Part shown: piece after piece, positions 1 through 42,656 of the stretch
How the letters are laid out: every line of letters begins with the position of its first letter
Numbering within the stretch: the stretch's first letter is position 1
Assembly (NCBI GenBank): GCA_938030895.1
Contig: CALHIV010000011.1
Coordinates: forward strand, 1 to 64,000
From: an uncultured Nitrososphaerales archaeon
Lineage (GTDB): Archaea; Thermoproteota; Nitrososphaeria; Nitrososphaerales; Nitrosocaldaceae
Direction: 5' to 3'
Length of the DNA: 64,000 nt
Notes under the pieces: generated by a model
Databases searched by the model: none
What the model saw: only the letters and a program-made list of their open reading frames with translations
Told to the model about the DNA's origin: nothing
Translations under genes and position numbers: made by a program

Positions 1-705
1 TCCTATTATGCAGTAGTCTCTGTTCTTAGCATATATATCAACTTCAATATCTTCCAATGCAAGGTTTCTCACCTTTAGAGTTATACCCTTCTGCTTCAAC
101 CAGTACTCTACCATATCCCTAGCCTCATCCTCTAAACTTACCGATATGTTATTCATGAATGACTCTATGTAACTTAACCTCTTATCCATATACTTGAACC
201 CTTCCTGCATATCCCTTCTTAGTTGCTCTATACTCTCCCAATGCCTTTTTAACTCCTCATCATGCCTTTTGAACCCTTCAAGCATATCCTGCCTTAACTT
301 CTCTATACTCTCCCATACCCTCTTGAACTCCTCATCATGCCTTTTGAACCCTTCAAGCATATCCTGCCTTAGCCTATTCGTCTCTGCCCTTAGATCCCTT
401 ATCTCCTCTTCAACCTTAGCAAACCTCTCATTCATCTCAGCCTGTAGATTAGCAAACCTCTCATCAACCTTAGCAAACCTCTCATTCATCTCAGTCTCTA
501 ACCTTAAGAACCTCTCATTCATCTCAGCCTGTAGATTAGCAAACCTCTCATCAACCTTAGCAAACCTCTCATTCATCTCAGTCTCTAATGCAACTATCCT
601 ATCCAAGATCTCTTTGTAGCCTATAGCTCCTGCTACAGCATGCCTAAACTCCTTATCCTCCTCAAGCATATCCAGAAGTCTCTTCTTCAACTCCTCTTGT
701 TGCAT
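1..705 (-). CDS. Coiled-coil protein, PD-(D/E)XK-like C-terminus (partial)
   Basis: The gene runs off the left edge; 235 residues are visible and the C-terminus is missing. The start at 705 reads MQQEELKKRLLDMLEEDKEF. Residues about 35-190 are a long coiled coil built from heptad-like repeats of two kinds, MNERFAKVDERFANLQAE and MLEGFKRHDEEFKRVWESIE, each present in several near-identical copies. The last visible residues (LALEDIEVDIYAKN...CIIG) look like the start of a PD-(D/E)XK-type nuclease fold, as in archaeal DUF3782/COG5493 proteins. Those proteins are common and of unknown role; a nuclease function is inference. The repeats probably grew by recombination. The family call is moderate because the C-terminal domain is cut. 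Confidence 0.75.
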   Translation of the reverse strand, partial: MQQEELKKRLLDMLEEDKEFRHAVAGAIGYKEILDRIVALETEMNERFAKVDERFANLQAEMNERFLRLETEMNERFAKVDERFANLQAEMNERFAKVEEEIRDLRAETNRLRQDMLEGFKRHDEEFKRVWESIEKLRQDMLEGFKRHDEELKRHWESIEQLRRDMQEGFKYMDKRLSYIESFMNNISVSLEDEARDMVEYWLKQKGITLKVRNLALEDIEVDIYAKNRDYCIIG

Positions 706-22494: not shown

Positions 22495-24024
22495 TTATGA
22501 TGATGGTGGTGTACTGATCCTCTTGTTACTGAAGAACCTCTTCGTCTCCCCGAGCATGAGCACCTCTGGTTGCATAGTCATCATCACCAAAGGGAGGTTG
22601 TTAACTACACTCCCTATAACCATACAGTGCTTTGCTGGCAGGGTTCTAACTATTGACTTTACAGACTCTGCATCTATCATCGATGCCCTTGCTATCTTCT
22701 CCAAGTCATTCTCGTTGGTGAAGTTGAAGAGGAAGATGTTATCCAACTGCCTGTATATACTATCGCTGATAGCATCTGGCTGGTTGGTTATGAACGTTGT
22801 GAATACTCCAAAGTGTCTCATCCTAGTCACTATATCCTCCCAGTAGGTATCTCTAAGGTATAGATGCGCCTCCTCAGCGAAGAGGAATATTGGGGGTATC
22901 TTGCCTTGCTCAAGTAGTTCAACGAGTTTGCTCAGTAGAAGTTCTACAGTCATCCTTCTAACCACTGGAGTAGTCTTGCCCATTCCTATTATCGCTATAG
23001 CACCATTAGACCTCTCCCTTATGATATCCTCTACCTTTACACCATTACTATCTGTAAAGAGCCCCGATGTGAGCATCGTATGTAGTCTAGATGCTAGAGC
23101 ATCCTTCACAAGCTCATTACTTCTCCAGCCTGCTACGGACTCTATGAGGTTTGATATGCTGAGCCTATTCCTTGATACTAGAGTATCCCAGATCCTGAAG
23201 AACTCCCTGAGCGATGCTGCTGGTATCTCTAGAGCATACTTGAGCATGCTGGCTATGGGACCCTTACCAAGGTAGTCTAGTGTGAACCTCAGGCCTCTTC
23301 CAGGCTCAAGGAATAGCACCTTATCCCCTATGCTACTCTTACCCCCATCATGCCTCCATGCCAAGCCAAGATACTCATTGTTGAGATCAAGTACGAATAT
23401 GTATGCACCATACTCTGCTAGGCTCTTGATTATGCTCTTTGCAAGATGCGATTTGCCTGAACCCTTCTTACCGGTTATGAGGTTCAACTTACCATCCAGA
23501 TCCTCAGCATATATGGTTATAGTCTCACCATCTTTGCTGTATCCTATCTCTATTGGGCGCATCTTAGGAGTATCTATTGTAACCATCCCTTCACCTCTCC
23601 CTCTCCCTATTCCACTCGCTCTTCCACCACTCTGTATAAGCGAGTTCAACTCGAGCATATCTACCCTCCTTATCCTTGAACTAACCCTAGATGGTAGCCA
23701 TGATGCTGTATAGCTTAACCTATCATCCTCTACACTCGCCCTTATCTTGCATCTTAAGAGTCTCGCATCCCTTACTATCCTTGCTATATCCCCTATCTCC
23801 AACGGATCGTATGGGTTACATCTGCTTGCTGCATTAACTACCTCATCCCTTATCATATCCTCAAGGAGCGACTGTGTATTATGGTACTCCTCATCATATA
23901 CCTGAACTAGTAGCCCTCTCTTACCATCGAGATCCTCTATGAGGAGGTAATCACCCTTGCCTATCTCTTCACTATGTAATGCAAGTAGTATTATCTCATC
24001 ACGCTCTTTGCTTATTATCCTCAT
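22495..24024 (-). CDS. herA: HerA-family ATPase (housekeeping copy)
   Basis: HerA is a hexameric DNA translocase that works with NurA and Mre11-Rad50 in end resection. The 509-residue protein has Walker A GKKGSGKSHLAK near residue 185, Walker B IFLFAEEAHLYL near 385 and the late segment TFITNQPDAISDSIYRQLDN. An N-terminal beta-rich barrel is plausible. GGRASGIGRGRGEGM is a Gly/Arg-rich linker before the ATPase. I start at 24024 (MRIISKERDE), 24 bases after the nurA stop. It is the second gene of a nurA-herA operon. Confidence 0.85.
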   Translation of the reverse strand: MRIISKERDEIILLALHSEEIGKGDYLLIEDLDGKRGLLVQVYDEEYHNTQSLLEDMIRDEVVNAASRCNPYDPLEIGDIARIVRDARLLRCKIRASVEDDRLSYTASWLPSRVSSRIRRVDMLELNSLIQSGGRASGIGRGRGEGMVTIDTPKMRPIEIGYSKDGETITIYAEDLDGKLNLITGKKGSGKSHLAKSIIKSLAEYGAYIFVLDLNNEYLGLAWRHDGGKSSIGDKVLFLEPGRGLRFTLDYLGKGPIASMLKYALEIPAASLREFFRIWDTLVSRNRLSISNLIESVAGWRSNELVKDALASRLHTMLTSGLFTDSNGVKVEDIIRERSNGAIAIIGMGKTTPVVRRMTVELLLSKLVELLEQGKIPPIFLFAEEAHLYLRDTYWEDIVTRMRHFGVFTTFITNQPDAISDSIYRQLDNIFLFNFTNENDLEKIARASMIDAESVKSIVRTLPAKHCMVIGSVVNNLPLVMMTMQPEVLMLGETKRFFSNKRISTPPSS

Positions 24025-24048
24025 CAAGCACCACCATAATATCATCTG

Positions 24049-25092
24049 TTATATCCTGCCCAAGAGTACCCTTCTAACATCATCTCCATCGACCTCCTTT
24101 ATCTTCAGCCTGCTCTTCATGAAGCCCTTTATGCAAAGCGCATCTGTATGCGTAAATACAGATGTATGGTGTGCAATCCTCAGAGACTCTGGATAACCAC
24201 TATGAAATGCATCATTTGCAATCAATATGCCCAGAGACCTTTGTGGATCATCGACCACATCCGCTCTGAGTACCAATCCATTGGGCGTGAGCTTTGCTAG
24301 GAGTGAACTTATCTTACCAATTCTAGCACTAACACTATACTCATCATCTCCATCACCACATAAGCGATGATCCTTATCGCTTCTCTTCTTACCATCATCC
24401 ATCCTCTCTACTACTGCTGTAACATCTGTATAACATGGGTACCCTTCTCTACTGAGGAGTGGCATAATATACTCAAGGTATCTGAGTCTAGTACTCTTGC
24501 TCAACCCTATGAGTATGTTGTTGTTAACTCTGCATACCTCCTCTATCTTATTGATGGTGTATAGGCGTTCATATATAGAGTGCCTTAAGGATCCATCTAC
24601 AAGTAGTATTATTCCTCTAAATGAGCCTGCTAATTCATATTGGATCAAGCGTTCAAGCCTCACCCTTATCATCCTCTTTATACCATCAATATCCATACTA
24701 GATACTCCATCGCTACTCCCATCCTGAATGTAGAATAGCAGGGGTCCTATCAGGGCATGTGTTATAGGCTTACCATCGTATGATAATGCTATACTACACT
24801 TTGCAGAGTATATAGAACCATCCATCGTCTCCCCTACCAGTATACAGCTAGAGTCTACTGCAACCACATATGTTGTTGCATCTACAGGTTCCAATCTATA
24901 CACTGGGATATCTCTAGCAAGGGTTACATCCCATCCCCCTACAGGCTTTAATACTCTATCGTTGGTGAATAGAACCTGTTTGCCACTCAACATATCCAGC
25001 CTAGATGGTATGAGATCGTCCAGACTCTTACCTATCATATCGACCACGCCTCCAAGATCGGATACAACAGGAAGGTTTAATTGTGTCTTCAT
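24049..25092 (-). CDS. nurA: NurA nuclease (housekeeping copy)
   Basis: NurA is the 5'-3' nuclease partner of HerA. This 347-residue protein has the NurA core: YVVAVDSSCILVGETMDGSI (first catalytic Asp) near residue 80, GIILLVDGSLRHSIYERLYT near 160, and the late SLRIAHHTSVFTHTDALCIK. LIGLSKSTRLRYL matches the middle motif. Normal length for NurA, unlike the second copy at 37505. The ATG at 25092 follows a TATA-like ACATTTATAGG that lies in a shared divergent promoter. Confidence 0.8.
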   Translation of the reverse strand: MKTQLNLPVVSDLGGVVDMIGKSLDDLIPSRLDMLSGKQVLFTNDRVLKPVGGWDVTLARDIPVYRLEPVDATTYVVAVDSSCILVGETMDGSIYSAKCSIALSYDGKPITHALIGPLLFYIQDGSSDGVSSMDIDGIKRMIRVRLERLIQYELAGSFRGIILLVDGSLRHSIYERLYTINKIEEVCRVNNNILIGLSKSTRLRYLEYIMPLLSREGYPCYTDVTAVVERMDDGKKRSDKDHRLCGDGDDEYSVSARIGKISSLLAKLTPNGLVLRADVVDDPQRSLGILIANDAFHSGYPESLRIAHHTSVFTHTDALCIKGFMKSRLKIKEVDGDDVRRVLLGRI

Positions 25093-25117
25093 CTTGTTCA
25101 ACAATATAGGATATGGG

Positions 25118-36475: not shown

Positions 36476-36486
36476 ACAGCAAGGAT

Positions 36487-36803
36487 GGTAGTAGCCCCGT
36501 TGGTTCCACCATAGAGCATGGACCCCATCTCAGACCCAGCCAGATCCCCCACGTAGACACGACAGCGTGGCCATCTCACCTTAGGGTTGCTCCCTCCCGG
36601 ACCTCACCCGGTTCGGTGATCGGATGGTGCCCCTATCCCTTCGGACAGGGAGCCCATCTATGACCACCCATCGTGGCGTGGGTTCATACCAGCAGGGTAA
36701 GCGGGTATCCATACTCCATGGATTTACCCAACGGTTACTGGTCCCCGCATGTAGCCGGTTTCGGGTATGGGGCACGGCTAGCACCCCGACCCTCCCTACT
36801 ACC
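36487..36803 (-). ncRNA. Signal recognition particle (7S) RNA
   Basis: A GC-rich block in an AT-rich context, read on the minus strand. The ends GGTAGTAG (from 36803) and CTACTACC (to 36487) pair to close the molecule. Helix-8-like sequence GGTGAGGTCCGGGAGGGAGC, continuing AACCCTAAGG, matches the conserved SRP54-binding motif, and GCTCCCTGTCCGAAGGGATA resembles helix 6 with its GNAR-type loop for SRP19. The length of about 317 nt is right for archaeal SRP RNA. Exact ends are my estimate. Confidence 0.9.
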
Positions 36804-36822
36804 ATTATAGTATATACTTGGA

Positions 36823-36835
36823 GAGTATTTACGTT
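36823..36835 (-). promoter_or_regulatory. TATA-like box of the SRP RNA gene
   Basis: On the minus strand AAACGTAAATACT lies about 20-32 bases upstream of the inferred RNA 5' end at 36803. Confidence 0.5.
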
Positions 36836-37504
36836 TTTATCATGGTTTTATCGCATGACTTTGTTCATAGCTGGTTATTATTTCTTATATTTCTTAAATT
36901 TTCTACAAAAATAAGTAGAAGATTTATAATATATAATCATATTATTGTATATATGTAAGATAGTCCTATACAGCAAAGCACAACTGTTCAGATTATCTAC
37001 ACATATAATATAATTAGATATTGGAGGGTCTTTCAAACAAAGAGAGGATGATAAGAATAGTGCAATAAAGAGGATACATGCCACCATCAGGTGATAATGA
37101 TAAGGTTAGCTTGGCTTTGAACCGTTATTAGCATATATTAGATTACTATGGTATGCATTAACATCATGTTATGTATGTATATGAGAATCTAAATCTAAAT
37201 CTAAATCTAAATGGGAATAGTTTAGATGGCAAGGGATCTTGAGATATCTCTTGAGATACCCTATATATGGATTTAAGTCTAAAATAGCAAGAATGACTAT
37301 CAACAGCATAAAAATAAGCATTTAGAATTACGGTTAGTGAAGAATGTTCAGTTCGATAAAGTAGATTGGCGCATGCCTATCTAGTCAGATAAGATCTTTA
37401 ATAGGAAAAGACTTATAGCGAAGATTATAAGGATATTATATATCTTGGGCAGTATATTAGCCAGTGTATATGGACATAATCATATCTACTATAAGGGATG
37501 AACC
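36836..37504. other. Intergenic region before the second nurA-herA-like pair
   Basis: AT-rich, no credible frame. At 37188-37212 there is a (TCTAAA)4 array. A TATATATC-like stretch precedes the next gene (37437-37444). No RNA gene recognised. Confidence 0.5.
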
Positions 37505-39403
37505 ATGTCCAGCTCAAGATCAAGTTCTATTACCGAGAGGTTAAGGCAACATACATCATGGCTGAGTAGGAGGTTTATAGATGTTGTCTCAAGATTCAAA
37601 GAGCAGACAGAGCTGAGATCAATTATAAAGACGGTCGATGTAACTAGAGGTATATTATTGCCCAAGGGCGAATATATCATGATTGGTATAGATGGTTCAA
37701 TGGACTATGATGAAAGGCTTGAGATGCTCCTCTTCTACATATGTGCCTCAGCCTACAGATGCCCTATAACTATTGATGATAACGGGGTACATGTTAACAT
37801 AAGTAAGACTGAACGTGACTCTAGGATAGCGTTATCATCAGGAATCCCACTATGGCTTGAGGATGTATCCAATGTGCTTGAGGCACTTCCTGCAGAGAGC
37901 GACTTTGAATTCGAGCAGAGGTTAAGGAGCATTCCCTTCACTCTAATGACTCTAGGAGAACTATCAATAGCATTAGATGCGCTAGAGTACAAAGATGTTC
38001 TTGCTATATTCCTTGATCGTCCTCTCTTTACAACGTTCAACACATCATCGAGGGATCTCAGGCTATTGCTAAAGAAAGAGTCAGCGCTCGTTGGTTTTCC
38101 CACTAGTCATGGCAGGTTATCTATGCTAGATATAAAAATAGCATCTATACTTGGAGCTGGTAACCTTTACATTCCTAGAAGAGAGCCATATCTCGTATAT
38201 GCAGCTATACAGGTTCTGATTAACGCTAGTAAGCGTAGTAATAGCAATAGTGGTGCAGATGAGGGGATTAAGATAGAGACTCTAGCAAAGGAGCTAAGAC
38301 TTGATGATAAAAGTGTAGAGAAGGTTGTGAAGGAACTGAATTATCTTGATAAGAGGTACGATGGGCAGTTGTTAGAGAAGTGCGCTGATGGATATGGCAA
38401 TTATGGGAATACATCTATCAGATTGAAGGATGATGTGAGACATTACTGGGAGAGAGTAATGGAAACAGTAGTAGCCATCAGGAGAAGAATCTTTGAGTCA
38501 ACGGATCAACATCCACTGTATCTTCATGATGACCGTTGGCTCACCTTACTTGATCTTAACGCTATCAACACATTCCTTATATATGAACTACTCGATAAGT
38601 CACTTGAAAGGAACATCATGGTAGTGGGAATTGCCAAGGATACCAGTGCAACTGACCTCATTAGGAGCGTTATACCGTTTGCAACCTATAAGGGCATGCT
38701 AAGAGGATCTGTTCAACACTATAACAGTGTAAAGAACGATAAACTGCTCCTAACTATGATGGCAGCAATGGATAACAACGTTGAGACCCCATGGCGAACC
38801 ATAAGCTATGATATCTGTTTCACAACTATGATCAGCGATACGAGAAGCAATTGGGTGCAAGGATCATCCTCTAATATATCACCAACTGCATCACAGGACC
38901 AACATGTATTATTCAGAGCAGCTAGGAAGCATATCTTTAGAGAGCGTCTATTCATAAAATCTTACTTCCAATTACGAAGATTTGCTACAGATAATACAGT
39001 GCGCTCTCCCGTATTCGTCTATGACCGTTTCTTTAACCCTAAAGTCGATAATCAATATGAGTCGTTGAGTGTATTGGAGCATAGAAGAAACGTGTCGATA
39101 GAACCTTACTTTGAGGGTACTAATACCAATCTATTAGATAACCTCATCCTACACATCCTCTCTAAATCAGATAACCCAGAGGTTCTAGAGGCCTTAGGGC
39201 ACAATCAACTCCTCTACCTTGCTGATAAGGCCGTCAAGGCTGAGATAACATCTATGAGGGGTGCCTTAAGAGGAGTAATGGATATAGAGCTGGATACACT
39301 GGCTAGAAGGGAGAGGATCTTCTCAGCATCAAGACGATTCAGGGATATTAGGAAAGAGAGTGAAAAGAGGCGTGAGAGTAAAGATTATCATAAACCTCGT
39401 TGA
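37505..39403 (+). CDS. Long divergent NurA-like nuclease with internal winged helix
   Basis: This 632-residue protein is nearly twice the usual NurA length. NurA-like landmarks appear in order: EYIMIGIDGSMDYDERLEML (candidate catalytic Asp63), DVLAIFLDRPLFTTFNTSSR (Asp171), RNIMVVGIAKDTSATDLIRS (lysine motif, about 378), VRSPVFVYDRFFNP (Asp507) and a late HNQLLYLADKAVKAEI. Between the second and third lies an insert of some 130 residues that includes a probable winged helix (IKIETLAKELRLDDKSVEKV) and the Ser/Asn run SNSNSG. A HerA-like gene starts 9 bases downstream. The NurA call is by motif order and context, not by a search; moderate. Confidence 0.6.
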   Translation: MSSSRSSSITERLRQHTSWLSRRFIDVVSRFKEQTELRSIIKTVDVTRGILLPKGEYIMIGIDGSMDYDERLEMLLFYICASAYRCPITIDDNGVHVNISKTERDSRIALSSGIPLWLEDVSNVLEALPAESDFEFEQRLRSIPFTLMTLGELSIALDALEYKDVLAIFLDRPLFTTFNTSSRDLRLLLKKESALVGFPTSHGRLSMLDIKIASILGAGNLYIPRREPYLVYAAIQVLINASKRSNSNSGADEGIKIETLAKELRLDDKSVEKVVKELNYLDKRYDGQLLEKCADGYGNYGNTSIRLKDDVRHYWERVMETVVAIRRRIFESTDQHPLYLHDDRWLTLLDLNAINTFLIYELLDKSLERNIMVVGIAKDTSATDLIRSVIPFATYKGMLRGSVQHYNSVKNDKLLLTMMAAMDNNVETPWRTISYDICFTTMISDTRSNWVQGSSSNISPTASQDQHVLFRAARKHIFRERLFIKSYFQLRRFATDNTVRSPVFVYDRFFNPKVDNQYESLSVLEHRRNVSIEPYFEGTNTNLLDNLILHILSKSDNPEVLEALGHNQLLYLADKAVKAEITSMRGALRGVMDIELDTLARRERIFSASRRFRDIRKESEKRRESKDYHKPR

Positions 39404-39412
39404 TGATTAATT

Positions 39413-41254
39413 ATGGTATCCAATATCAACTATGAGATATTCAATGATATAGGAGGTAGATTTGAGGCTAGGCTTAGAGAGAATAAGATAACAACAACGA
39501 CCACAAAGATGCGTGAGGGCGATGTTACTCTAACCAATCCTATAGCCATCCTAGATGTAAGGTTTGATTTTGACGTCCTCAATAGATTGCATGAACCATC
39601 GTTTGTAGGTATAGAGAGGCGTCTGACGGCTGATGATACAAGCGAGAAGATATACCTGATATATGAGATAGTTACACCAAACCCTATCCACTTCCAGATG
39701 CTTGGGATGAATGTTACTATGCCTACAGTGATAAGGAAGGAGTATCTTGAGATCATAGAGAGTAGCTGGGGCAAGAGCGATGATACATGGATAGATGTTG
39801 TTGCCGTACCTACCAACTACATGATGAAGATTGTCACTGATAAAGTAGGTGGGATAGAACCGATCTTCAATAGATCTAGACTTGTACCGTTGATTGGTTC
39901 TAGGGCGTATCTCCTTTCCAACTATACGGTAAGCAAGTTCCTCTGTATCGAAGGAGGAGTATCGTTAGGCACCATGATAGGCTTCGATATGCCCCTTACA
40001 GTGAGCATCGATAACATGATAAGATACCATACTGGTATATTTGGGTTCACAGGATCAGGCAAGTCAAATCTAACCTCATATCTGGTAAGAGAGGCTCTAA
40101 GAAGTATAAGCGATTTAGCTGTAGTTATCTTCGATATTGGTGGGGAGTACTCTATACACCTACTCGATCTTATAAGCAATGATGGACTAATATATACAAC
40201 AGAAGAGTTCAATAATGACCCAGCAAGGTTCATTGCCTCCCAGGTTATCCCTGAGACATTAGAGGAGAGGATCAGTGAATCGACTCTGTTAAGGTATGCT
40301 GAGAATATCTTGAACCAGAATAGGGTAAGGAGGATATCCGTTCATACAAACAGCATGTCAATACTCTCTCTAGGATATATCATATCAATACTTAATGATG
40401 CGGCTCAGTCAAGTAGAGGAGGAGCATTACGGGCCGGAATAATGCTACAGAAGATCAATGATTATATAAATAAACATAATATCAATACTAATACAGATAT
40501 AGCAGATATAAAAAGTGAAGATAGAAGATATCTGGTAGATATAATAGGAGAGTACCTCGATAATCCAAATGATAGAACTGCATTGAAGCAAGATCTTCAA
40601 GCACTTGTGGAGTATATAAACAAAATAGAAGAGAACAATGTTACAGATGGCAAGGTGTTACAGAATGGTATAAAGGGTGAGGTAACACCTATAGATGCAG
40701 GGAAATTGGCATCATGTATACTTCATGATACACCAACGCTTAGCATAGTCTACATACCGAAACCAGATCATGCTAGAAATATTGTATCAATGTTCATTGA
40801 TAGGCTCTTCTACCTAAAGAAGGTATATGGTTCAAAGAAGAAGGTCCTTATAGTTCTTGATGAAGCCCAAGAATTCATTCCAGATCGTGTAAAGGAAGAA
40901 GATGGTTCGTCGAGCTCAAATAGGGCAGTAGAGGCCCTACTGAGACAGGGAAGGAAGTACAGGTTACACTGCTGGTTGAGTACGCAAAGGGTTGCTCATC
41001 TTAACGTTAATGCACTACAGCAACTTCATACTTACTTTGTAAGTGTACTGCCCAGATTCTACGATAGAATGGTTATCGCTGATGCCTTCTCATTAAGCTA
41101 CAACATACTGGAGAGGACCACAGAGCTTGAGACAGGACAATGGTTGTTTGTATCATACAAAGCCACCAAACAGAAGAACGTCCCAGTATTTATCCAGGCA
41201 AATAATAATGAAGATATACTGTGTAGCAGATTAAACTATTCTATTAGTTATTAG
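39413..41254 (+). CDS. HerA-like ATPase, second copy
   Basis: A 613-residue FtsK/HerA-class ATPase. The N-terminal 200 residues form a HAS-barrel-like region. Walker A is GIFGFTGSGKSNLTSYLVRE (residues 209-228), Walker B KKVLIVLDEAQEFIPD (476-491), and LLRQGRKYRLHCWLSTQRVA carries the arginine/sensor segment. Residues about 260-440 are a long helical insert not seen in the first HerA. It differs clearly from the copy at 22495. Tightly paired with the NurA-like gene, so the two probably form one translocase-nuclease complex. Role in repair or defence is open. Confidence 0.8.
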   Translation: MVSNINYEIFNDIGGRFEARLRENKITTTTTKMREGDVTLTNPIAILDVRFDFDVLNRLHEPSFVGIERRLTADDTSEKIYLIYEIVTPNPIHFQMLGMNVTMPTVIRKEYLEIIESSWGKSDDTWIDVVAVPTNYMMKIVTDKVGGIEPIFNRSRLVPLIGSRAYLLSNYTVSKFLCIEGGVSLGTMIGFDMPLTVSIDNMIRYHTGIFGFTGSGKSNLTSYLVREALRSISDLAVVIFDIGGEYSIHLLDLISNDGLIYTTEEFNNDPARFIASQVIPETLEERISESTLLRYAENILNQNRVRRISVHTNSMSILSLGYIISILNDAAQSSRGGALRAGIMLQKINDYINKHNINTNTDIADIKSEDRRYLVDIIGEYLDNPNDRTALKQDLQALVEYINKIEENNVTDGKVLQNGIKGEVTPIDAGKLASCILHDTPTLSIVYIPKPDHARNIVSMFIDRLFYLKKVYGSKKKVLIVLDEAQEFIPDRVKEEDGSSSSNRAVEALLRQGRKYRLHCWLSTQRVAHLNVNALQQLHTYFVSVLPRFYDRMVIADAFSLSYNILERTTELETGQWLFVSYKATKQKNVPVFIQANNNEDILCSRLNYSISY

Positions 41255-41735
41255 TGAAGAAGCATATGCTTGTTACCGATCTATATTATAGTAGTATAGC
41301 AATAAAAAGAGAGCAACATAATGATAGATGAGTAATTAATATAGATGAGAGGTGTGTCTCCTTTTCACCTAGCAAGATTCTTGCTTCCAAGAAGGGATAT
41401 TTATAACATTACCCTCTAGAGCGATATTTGGTAAGTCTAGGCAAGTAAGTCCTCTCCAATTATTTGAGATTTTTGGTTTAGAATCGTATTTACTCCTAGC
41501 TTATTCCATTATAGACTACCGAGAGCAACTTTTTCTTCTTGTTGTGTATCTGCTGCTTTGTTGCACGATTTAATATATGTATGTATGTAGTCATTTCTTA
41601 ATGAGCGTGATCTCTTGAATATAAGCAGATTATCTCATAGTATATGCAATATGTTATTGCAGTATATAGATCTACCATTCTCCCATACTCATAGCAAACA
41701 TTAAGGGATAACGATTATTCATTCAACAAGTACTT
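41255..41735. other. Intergenic region downstream of the second herA-like gene
   Basis: About 480 bases without a supported gene. GGATATTTATAAC (41396-41408) looks like a plus-strand TATA box, but nothing recognisable follows it; an unannotated small RNA is possible. Confidence 0.45.
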
Positions 41736-42656
41736 CTACTCTACGATCCTCCTCTGGAGCCTATTCCTCAAGTATATTGCTAGCACGTTTAGTGTTAAGA
41801 GTATTATCAGTAGTACGATTATACCAGCCGCAGACAATTCTATGAATGCTTGCTGTGGTCTGCTCACCCAGTTGTATATCTGGAGTGGCATAACGGTGAA
41901 CTCATCAAAGAGCGATAATGGGTCCCTACGTACAAAGATCAATCCACTTATAACCAGTATAGGTGCAGCCTCTCCCATTGCTCTGGATAATGCCAATATA
42001 GAACTTGTTAGTGCCGTAGGGATTATCTGGGGTAGAACAACCTTGAATACAACTTGGTACTTCCTTGCGCCTAGGGCATATGCAGCAAGCCTATGTGTTG
42101 CTGGAACCATCCTAGCACTCTCTATTGTGGTTACTGTTATCAGAGGGAGTACAAGGAATGCTAATGCTATAGAACCAACTATTATGGATCTACCTAAACC
42201 TAGATTGTAGGAGAGGAAGCTTAGCGCAACTAGCCCAAATATAACAGATGGTATGCCTGCAAGGTTAGTTAACGTCGAGTATATTAGTCTAGTCACGATA
42301 TTGTTACCACCATACTCATTTAGATACAGTCCAGTAGCTATACCCAATGGTAACGCTATAGCAATGGCAAATACTACAGTATAAAGCGAGCCTAGTATTG
42401 CTGCCCTCATACCTGCCTCGTTAACATTACTGGATGCATAGTTGAAGAACAGGTTGGCATTCAATCTATCTATACCATTGAGTGTTATGTTGACTAGGAG
42501 AACTGTAAGAACCATAACACCTATACATATAGATATAAGTACATAGAACTGTAGACCATACTCTGAGATGACTACACCCTTTCCTTTTATCTTGGACTTC
42601 TCAACACCTATTACCTCCTCCTTACTTATACTCATACTCATACCTTTATCTCCCAC
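41736..42656 (-). CDS. pstA: Phosphate ABC transporter permease PstA
   Basis: A 306-residue membrane permease of the high-affinity phosphate importer. Six hydrophobic segments are visible. Landmarks are AILGSLYTVVFAIAIALPLG, NLAGIPSVIFGLVALSFL and the ATPase-docking loop AAYALGARKYQVVFKVVLPQ. Its start overlaps pstC by 19 bases. Third gene of the pstS-pstC-pstA unit. Confidence 0.93.
   Translation of the reverse strand: MGDKGMSMSISKEEVIGVEKSKIKGKGVVISEYGLQFYVLISICIGVMVLTVLLVNITLNGIDRLNANLFFNYASSNVNEAGMRAAILGSLYTVVFAIAIALPLGIATGLYLNEYGGNNIVTRLIYSTLTNLAGIPSVIFGLVALSFLSYNLGLGRSIIVGSIALAFLVLPLITVTTIESARMVPATHRLAAYALGARKYQVVFKVVLPQIIPTALTSSILALSRAMGEAAPILVISGLIFVRRDPLSLFDEFTVMPLQIYNWVSRPQQAFIELSAAGIIVLLIILLTLNVLAIYLRNRLQRRIVE

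What the first reader, a model, noticed from the sequence alone, without database searches (positions are those of the whole stretch)
37505..41254. A second, divergent NurA-HerA-like pair with an oversized NurA partner
The window already has a normal nurA-herA operon (22495-25092). This second pair is tightly linked (9-base gap) and set apart by gene-poor flanks. The first protein is 632 aa with NurA-like motifs in the right order but about 130 extra residues holding a likely winged helix; the HerA-like protein has a long helical insert. HerA paired with nucleases is known in anti-phage defence as well as repair. A spare translocase-nuclease pair with its own DNA-reading module is the best candidate here for an undescribed system.
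Basis: partly seen in the sequence, partly recalled or inferred. Interest (0 to 1): 0.8.

Follow-up and report, generated by a model that had tools for sequence, protein, structure and literature searches.

The report
Mobile NurA-HerA-type DNA-destroying gene pair
An archaeal genome has gained a self-contained two-gene machine, predicted to pull DNA into a nuclease and destroy it; five sister species lack it, relatives hold divergent versions at one site, and the best guess is that it defends against invading DNA, though this is untested.

Summary
ORFs 37505-39403 (632 aa) and 39413-41254 (613 aa) form a nuclease-translocase pair of the NurA-HerA type. Sequence similarity of the first to NurA is below threshold, but its predicted fold matches solved NurA structures and nothing else convincingly, the acidic catalytic residues are invariant in 72 relatives, and a fast-evolving winged helix is inserted. 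The HerA partner is clear. The pair is a distinct two-gene family: 67 of 398 sampled genomes of the phylum, nurA beside herA in 76 of 79 checkable loci, dN/dS about 0.1. It is separate from the canonical pair on another contig, from the second pair at 22495-25104, and from the CRISPR-linked Pyrobaculum nurA-csm6-herA.

It is not housekeeping. All five congeners have an empty site of 21-41 bp where this genome carries about 4.9 kb, between the SRP RNA gene and pstA. In another family, one chromosomal slot holds either of two versions only 30% alike, while the flanking gene stays about 67% alike.

Best reading: a stand-alone DNA-degrading defence module; the mechanism is likely, the role about even odds. 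No CRISPR link, no defence-island enrichment, no integrase. Accessory DNA repair is the main rival. New variant of a known kind.

The parts
36838..41735 (.). Segment of about 4.9 kb gained in this species; congeners have 21-41 bp between the aligned flanks
   Evidence: BLASTN joins to five congeners, junction sequences; no target-site duplication or terminal repeat found
37505..39403 (+). NurA2: divergent NurA-fold nuclease, 632 aa
   Evidence: ORF, family alignment A1, AlphaFold + Foldseek to NurA, PF09376 in 10 of 22 members
37685..37699 (+). Motif I GIDGS (residues 61-65); D63 corresponds by motif to catalytic Asp49 of T. kodakarensis NurA
   Evidence: D63 and G64 in 72 of 72 sequences; Asp49 essential in PMC12977600
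38186..38440 (+). Winged-helix insert of NurA2 (residues 228-312)
   Evidence: helix-helix-helix-strand order in the model, weak matches of members to HTH/TFIIE families and to a Z-DNA-binding winged helix; fastest-diverging part of the protein
39197..39229 (+). C-terminal motif GHNQLLYLADK (residues 565-575), counterpart of GYPxxLxxAH in other NurAs
   Evidence: position 566 is His in 65 and Tyr in 7, D574 in 72 of 72; canonical motif read
39413..41254 (+). HerA2: FtsK/HerA-superfamily DNA translocase, 613 aa
   Evidence: DUF87 2.7e-18; AlphaFold + Foldseek top hit Tko HerA-NurA 8.4e-20; own clade in the tree
40043..40066 (+). Walker A GFTGSGKS of HerA2; the intein site in some relatives
   Evidence: intein in L128, L129, L136, L139
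40844..40867 (+). Walker B region with the DEAQ motif of HerA2
   Evidence: D483, E484 near-invariant
36489..36801 (-). SRP RNA gene, left neighbour of the insertion (its 5' side)
   Evidence: Rfam RF01857, 147 bits
41736..42656 (-). pstA-like transporter permease, right neighbour of the insertion (its 3' end)
   Evidence: PF00528; adjacent to the SRP RNA gene in five congeners
22495..25104 (-). The window's other NurA-HerA pair (HerA1 22495-24045, NurA1 24049-25104), conserved in all congeners; comparison only

Best explanation
The two genes encode a stand-alone HerA-NurA-type machine. HerA2 forms a ring that pumps duplex DNA in an ATP-driven way into a NurA2 dimer, which cuts both strands. 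Its likely role is to destroy foreign DNA (virus, plasmid or conjugating DNA) that offers a suitable end or state. The winged helix inserted in NurA2 would bind or gate DNA and set which DNA is accepted. Shown here: the pair, the folds, conserved catalytic residues, purifying selection, recent gain and different versions at one site. Inferred from solved homologues: ring plus dimer, pumping, cleavage. Inferred only: foreign DNA as target, and the role of the winged helix.
For: Fold and motifs of both partners. nurA2 directly beside herA2 in 76 of 79 checkable loci and correlated distances (r=0.88). dN/dS 0.03-0.18 in nine close pairs. Absent in 5 of 5 congeners at a clean empty site, with gain favoured over loss because the short junction is homologous among congeners. 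Patchy: 22 of 61 relatives, 67 of 398 genomes of the phylum. In one genus, divergent versions sit at the same site: flanking gene about 67% identical whichever versions are compared, NurA2 30% between versions against 65% within. The winged helix evolves faster than the nuclease. The closest PADLOC model of HerA2 is the CRISPR type III-linked HerA, although this pair stands apart from it. The T. kodakarensis HerA-NurA complex degrades both strands and its authors propose a role against viruses (PMC12977600).
Against: No defence-island enrichment among the flanks. No association with Cas1: 7 of 22 pair-bearing against 14 of 39 pair-free relatives. No self/non-self marker gene accompanies the pair. 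Different versions at one site could also come from differential loss of old tandem paralogues. Nothing shows activity or antiviral effect. A profile-profile comparison with the window's other NurA found no sequence relation, so the NurA assignment rests on the fold, on motifs and on weak Pfam matches.
Confidence: 0.5

Rival explanations
1. Accessory DNA repair: a spare end-processing complex that works on broken chromosomal ends or stalled forks, useful in some lineages.
For: Canonical NurA-HerA is linked to Mre11-Rad50 and end resection (literature, e.g. PMC4351679); the pair sits among housekeeping genes in most genomes; some genera hold it in every genome searched (g11, g32).
Against: The genome already has two other pairs; the presence pattern is patchy and congeners do without it; divergent versions occupy one site; the winged helix diverges fast.
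Confidence: 0.3
2. Cargo or remnant of a mobile element: the pair serves DNA processing or competition of an integrated plasmid or virus.
For: Recent gain as a small insert; an intein with a LAGLIDADG match lies in HerA2 of some relatives; HerA-like ATPases are common in archaeal dark-matter islands (PMC4158269).
Against: The insert holds only these two genes, no integrase, no attachment or target-site repeats; no relative in the viral contig collection with the patterns used; no tRNA beside most copies.
Confidence: 0.12
3. A CRISPR accessory pair, like the nurA-csm6-herA cluster of Pyrobaculum.
For: The best PADLOC model of HerA2 is the HerA labelled 'Type III coevolved', 121 bits; both NurAs end the C-terminal motif in AD[RK].
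Against: The Pyrobaculum-type HerA scores 604 bits on that model and its NurA 373 on the partner model, whereas NurA2 has no match to the NurA model; HerA2 forms its own clade; no Cas1 in this genome; no csm6 gene beside the pair.
Confidence: 0.05

Closest known systems
HerA-NurA complex of Thermococcus kodakarensis (PDB 9x1l-9x1p, PMC12977600)
   Same: Translocase plus nuclease; best fold match of HerA2 and among the best of NurA2; catalytic Asp motif
   Different: NurA2 has a winged-helix insert and GHNxxLxLAD instead of GYPxxLxxAH; little sequence identity (11-15% over structural alignments); patchy, recently gained here
CRISPR-linked nurA-csm6-herA of Pyrobaculum (PMC3396285; PADLOC PDLC01055/PDLC01056)
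   Same: Extra NurA-HerA pair beside the canonical one; closest PADLOC model for HerA2; AD[RK] at the end of the C-terminal motif
   Different: No csm6, no CRISPR link in this genome, NurA of 338 aa without the large insert, separate clade of HerA
HerA-based defence pairs of bacteria (SIR2-HerA, DUF4297-HerA)
   Same: Two-gene systems with a HerA ring and an effector; clear fold similarity of HerA2
   Different: Effector is a SIR2 or DUF4297 enzyme, not a NurA-fold nuclease
The window's other pair HerA1-NurA1 (22495-25104)
   Same: NurA-HerA-type pair
   Different: Conserved in all congeners, NurA1 351 aa without the insert, HerA1 in another clade

Membership tests
NurA (PF09376) | Profile match above the curated cut-off | tested here: not met
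   13.5 bits against 21 for this protein; 10 of 22 relatives match at E<=1, best 5.7e-6
NurA (PF09376) | NurA fold | tested here: met
   AlphaFold model; the ten PDB hits at E<=1e-3 are all NurA, next hit 0.02; global superposition is poor because of the inserts
NurA (PF09376) | Catalytic acidic residues (Asp of motif I, Glu, Asp) | tested here: met
   D63, E152 and D171 in 72 of 72; equivalence to known sites by motif order only
NurA (PF09376) | C-terminal GYPxxLxxAH motif | tested here: not met
   GHNxxLxLAD; His/Tyr at 566, Asp at 574 in all 72
NurA (PF09376) | Mn-dependent nuclease activity with HerA | not testable with these tools
   needs protein
HerA (DUF87, PF01935) | Profile match, Walker A and B | tested here: met
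   67.3 bits against 23.2; motifs near-invariant in the family
HerA (DUF87, PF01935) | N-terminal HAS barrel | tested here: inconclusive
   strand-rich N-terminus in the model, no Pfam HAS-barrel match
HerA (DUF87, PF01935) | Hexameric ring | not testable with these tools
   no complex prediction available
CRISPR-linked nurA-csm6-herA | csm6 (Cas_APE2256) in the cluster and a CRISPR locus near | tested here: not met
   9-base gap between the genes; no PF09651 or Cas1 match in this genome
CRISPR-linked nurA-csm6-herA | NurA and HerA of the 'Type III coevolved' models | tested here: not met
   HerA2 121 bits against 604 for the Pyrobaculum-type HerA; NurA2 no match; separate clade
SIR2-HerA / DUF4297-HerA defence systems | SIR2 or DUF4297 effector partner | tested here: not met
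   partner has the NurA fold and no SIR2 or DUF4297 family match

The most novel reading that the evidence does not exclude
A widespread, CRISPR-independent two-gene immune system of Nitrososphaeria and related archaea, in which a NurA-fold nuclease with its own fast-evolving winged helix selects invading DNA and a dedicated HerA pump feeds it in; hosts exchange divergent versions at fixed chromosomal sites.
Probability: 0.35. Interest if true: 0.75.

Novelty: new variant of a known kind. Interest (0 to 1): 0.55.

Why it matters
Whether archaeal HerA-NurA serves repair or antiviral defence is an open question (PMC12977600). This family is a natural experiment: a HerA-NurA-type pair that is dispensable, gained cleanly, present in divergent versions at one site and fitted with its own winged helix. 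It is a compact two-gene unit that could be tested directly in a laboratory host, with a clean comparison between sister species with and without it.

Tried and rejected
Profile-profile comparison of NurA2 with the window's other NurA family: no relation (0.3% probability). Sequence search of PDB with NurA2 alone or as a profile: no NurA hit. Search of viral contigs: no relative. CRISPR link: rejected. Defence-island context: not found. Transposon or integrase-type insertion: no terminal repeats, duplication or integrase. The two tRNA calls around the pair in L120 are two different tRNAs sharing 20 bases, not a duplicated attachment site. Upstream genes as a recurrent third partner: unrelated metabolic and transport genes, one Eco57I-like methylase. 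The nucleotidyltransferase gene beside the pair in one family: not taken as a partner, since it is on the opposite strand, has a stop inside in one genome and is absent elsewhere. Composition: GC 0.41 and 0.40 against a mean of 0.44 for window genes, codon usage within the spread, so composition alone does not show foreign origin.

Full report
What is there. Two ORFs on the + strand, 37505-39403 (632 aa, 'NurA2') and 39413-41254 (613 aa, 'HerA2'), are separated by 9 bases. HerA2 is a clear HerA/FtsK-superfamily ATPase (DUF87 E=2.7e-18). NurA2 alone is below threshold for NurA (E=0.052) and finds nothing in PDB by sequence.

NurA identity. Aligned with 21 relatives (A1), NurA2 gives a confident model (pLDDT 83, pTM 0.85). 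Its ten PDB matches at E<=1e-3 are all NurA (3taz, 3tai, 3tal, 9x1l-n, 2ygk); the next has E=0.02. Global superposition is poor (TM-score by target 0.36-0.59), as expected with large inserts. Ten of 22 members match PF09376, best 5.7e-6. D63, E152, D171, D209, K378, D379, D436 and D574 are invariant in 72 sequences. The C-terminal motif is GHNxxLxLAD where the canonical NurA and the window's other NurA have GYPxxLxxAH; position 566 is Tyr in seven members, which supports the register. A profile-profile comparison with the window's other NurA family failed. I therefore call it a divergent NurA-fold protein that fails two tests of canonical NurA, the curated cut-off and the C-terminal motif.

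The insert. The DR-to-KD distance is about 204 residues in NurA2 against 30-40 in the canonical, CRISPR-linked and second-pair NurAs. Residues 228-312 have the order of a winged helix in the model, with weak HTH, TFIIE-alpha and Z-DNA-binding-domain matches. This part diverges faster than the nuclease: at 45-60% overall identity it is 29% identical against 52% for the first nuclease part. The helical insert of HerA2 is not special: HerAs carry a helical-bundle domain there (PMC12977600).

Which pair is normal. The genome has three NurA-HerA pairs. The canonical one is on contig C4 (NurA 1.6e-23, HerA 4.6e-31). The one at 22495-25104 is itself divergent but conserved: NurA1 is in all five congeners and 46 of 61 relatives. 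The finding is the third. In a HerA tree, HerA2 and relatives form one clade (SH-aLRT 100) apart from canonical HerA, HerA1 and the CRISPR-linked HerA; deeper joins are weak, with long branches.

A two-gene family under selection. In named genomes nurA2 lies beside herA2 in 76 of 79 loci that could be checked; L152, L153 and L154 lack an adjacent HerA2. Distances of the partners correlate (r=0.88, 0 of 2000 permutations), although shared species history adds to that. dN/dS is 0.03-0.18 in nine close pairs. No third gene recurs across families.

Patchy and mobile. The family is in 22 of 61 relatives and, counting strong matches only, 67 of 398 sampled genomes of the phylum (the 19 weak matches in one family look like the C-terminal part of ordinary NurA). 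None of five congeners has it. There the SRP RNA gene (RF01857) and pstA are neighbours: BLASTN alignments end at window 36837 or 36843 and resume at 41735-41748, with 21-41 bp between them in the congeners. The junction sequence is homologous in three congeners, including the nearest one (G005), which favours gain over repeated loss. I found no target-site duplication, terminal repeat or integrase. The related genus has a copy elsewhere.

Different versions at one site. The NurA2 tree has two deep clades. In one genus (g11) and neighbouring lineages both occur in the same slot beside a 254-aa nucleotidyltransferase gene: G029 and G046 hold one, G015, G053 and G059 the other. The flanking gene is 67% identical between loci of different clades and 66% between loci of the same clade, whereas NurA2 is 30% against 65% and HerA2 37% against 74%. 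Replacement of the pair as a unit fits; differential loss of tandem paralogues is not excluded.

Context. Flanks are mostly metabolic; PADLOC finds restriction-modification proteins in one or a few loci, for example an Eco57I-like methylase upstream in L112. Cas1 is absent from this genome and no more common with the pair (7 of 22) than without it (14 of 39). PADLOC's 'Type III coevolved' HerA model matches the Pyrobaculum-type HerA at 604 bits and HerA2 at 121; the matching NurA model hits the Pyrobaculum-type NurA at 373 bits and NurA2 not at all.

Mechanism. The T. kodakarensis complex is a HerA hexamer with a NurA dimer that pumps duplex DNA with ATP and cuts both strands; its authors doubt end resection and suggest antiviral defence (PMC12977600). 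By fold and conserved residues NurA2-HerA2 should work likewise. The distribution fits a defence or conflict module better than housekeeping repair, but no defence context and no experiment supports it, hence confidence 0.5 for the role. The host is inferred to be a Nitrososphaeria archaeon from the named records of same-order relatives; its name is not known to me.

Noticed in passing
L128:9175-12546, L129:9754-13155, L136:6030-9428, L139:2405-5818 (L130 partial): HerA2 of some Nitrososphaeria relatives contains an insert of about 530 aa inside the Walker A motif, between F212 and T213 of the window protein; in L128 it matches an intein (PF14890 1e-18, LAGLIDADG_3).
   Followed up: partly
G000 contigs C4:28039 and C18:9950 (L051, L050): The genome has a canonical NurA-HerA pair on C4 and a further HerA/TraG-like ATPase on C18.
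   Followed up: partly
window 36484-36837: The SRP RNA region is 96-97% identical to congeners while neighbouring genes are about 78-89% identical.
   Followed up: no
L152, L153, L154: NurA2 relatives without an adjacent HerA2 and with no HerA2 remnant in the fetched stretch.
   Followed up: partly
L140:6437-7201 and orthologues: A 254-aa nucleotidyltransferase-like gene (PF14907 1e-6, just below its cut-off) marks the slot where divergent versions of the pair are found; it has a stop inside in G046.
   Followed up: partly
L112:5048-7939: An Eco57I-like DNA methylase gene of 963 aa lies 59 bases upstream of nurA2.
   Followed up: no
window 194-588: Tandem direct repeats of 75 and 80 bases inside a short ORF.
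   Followed up: no
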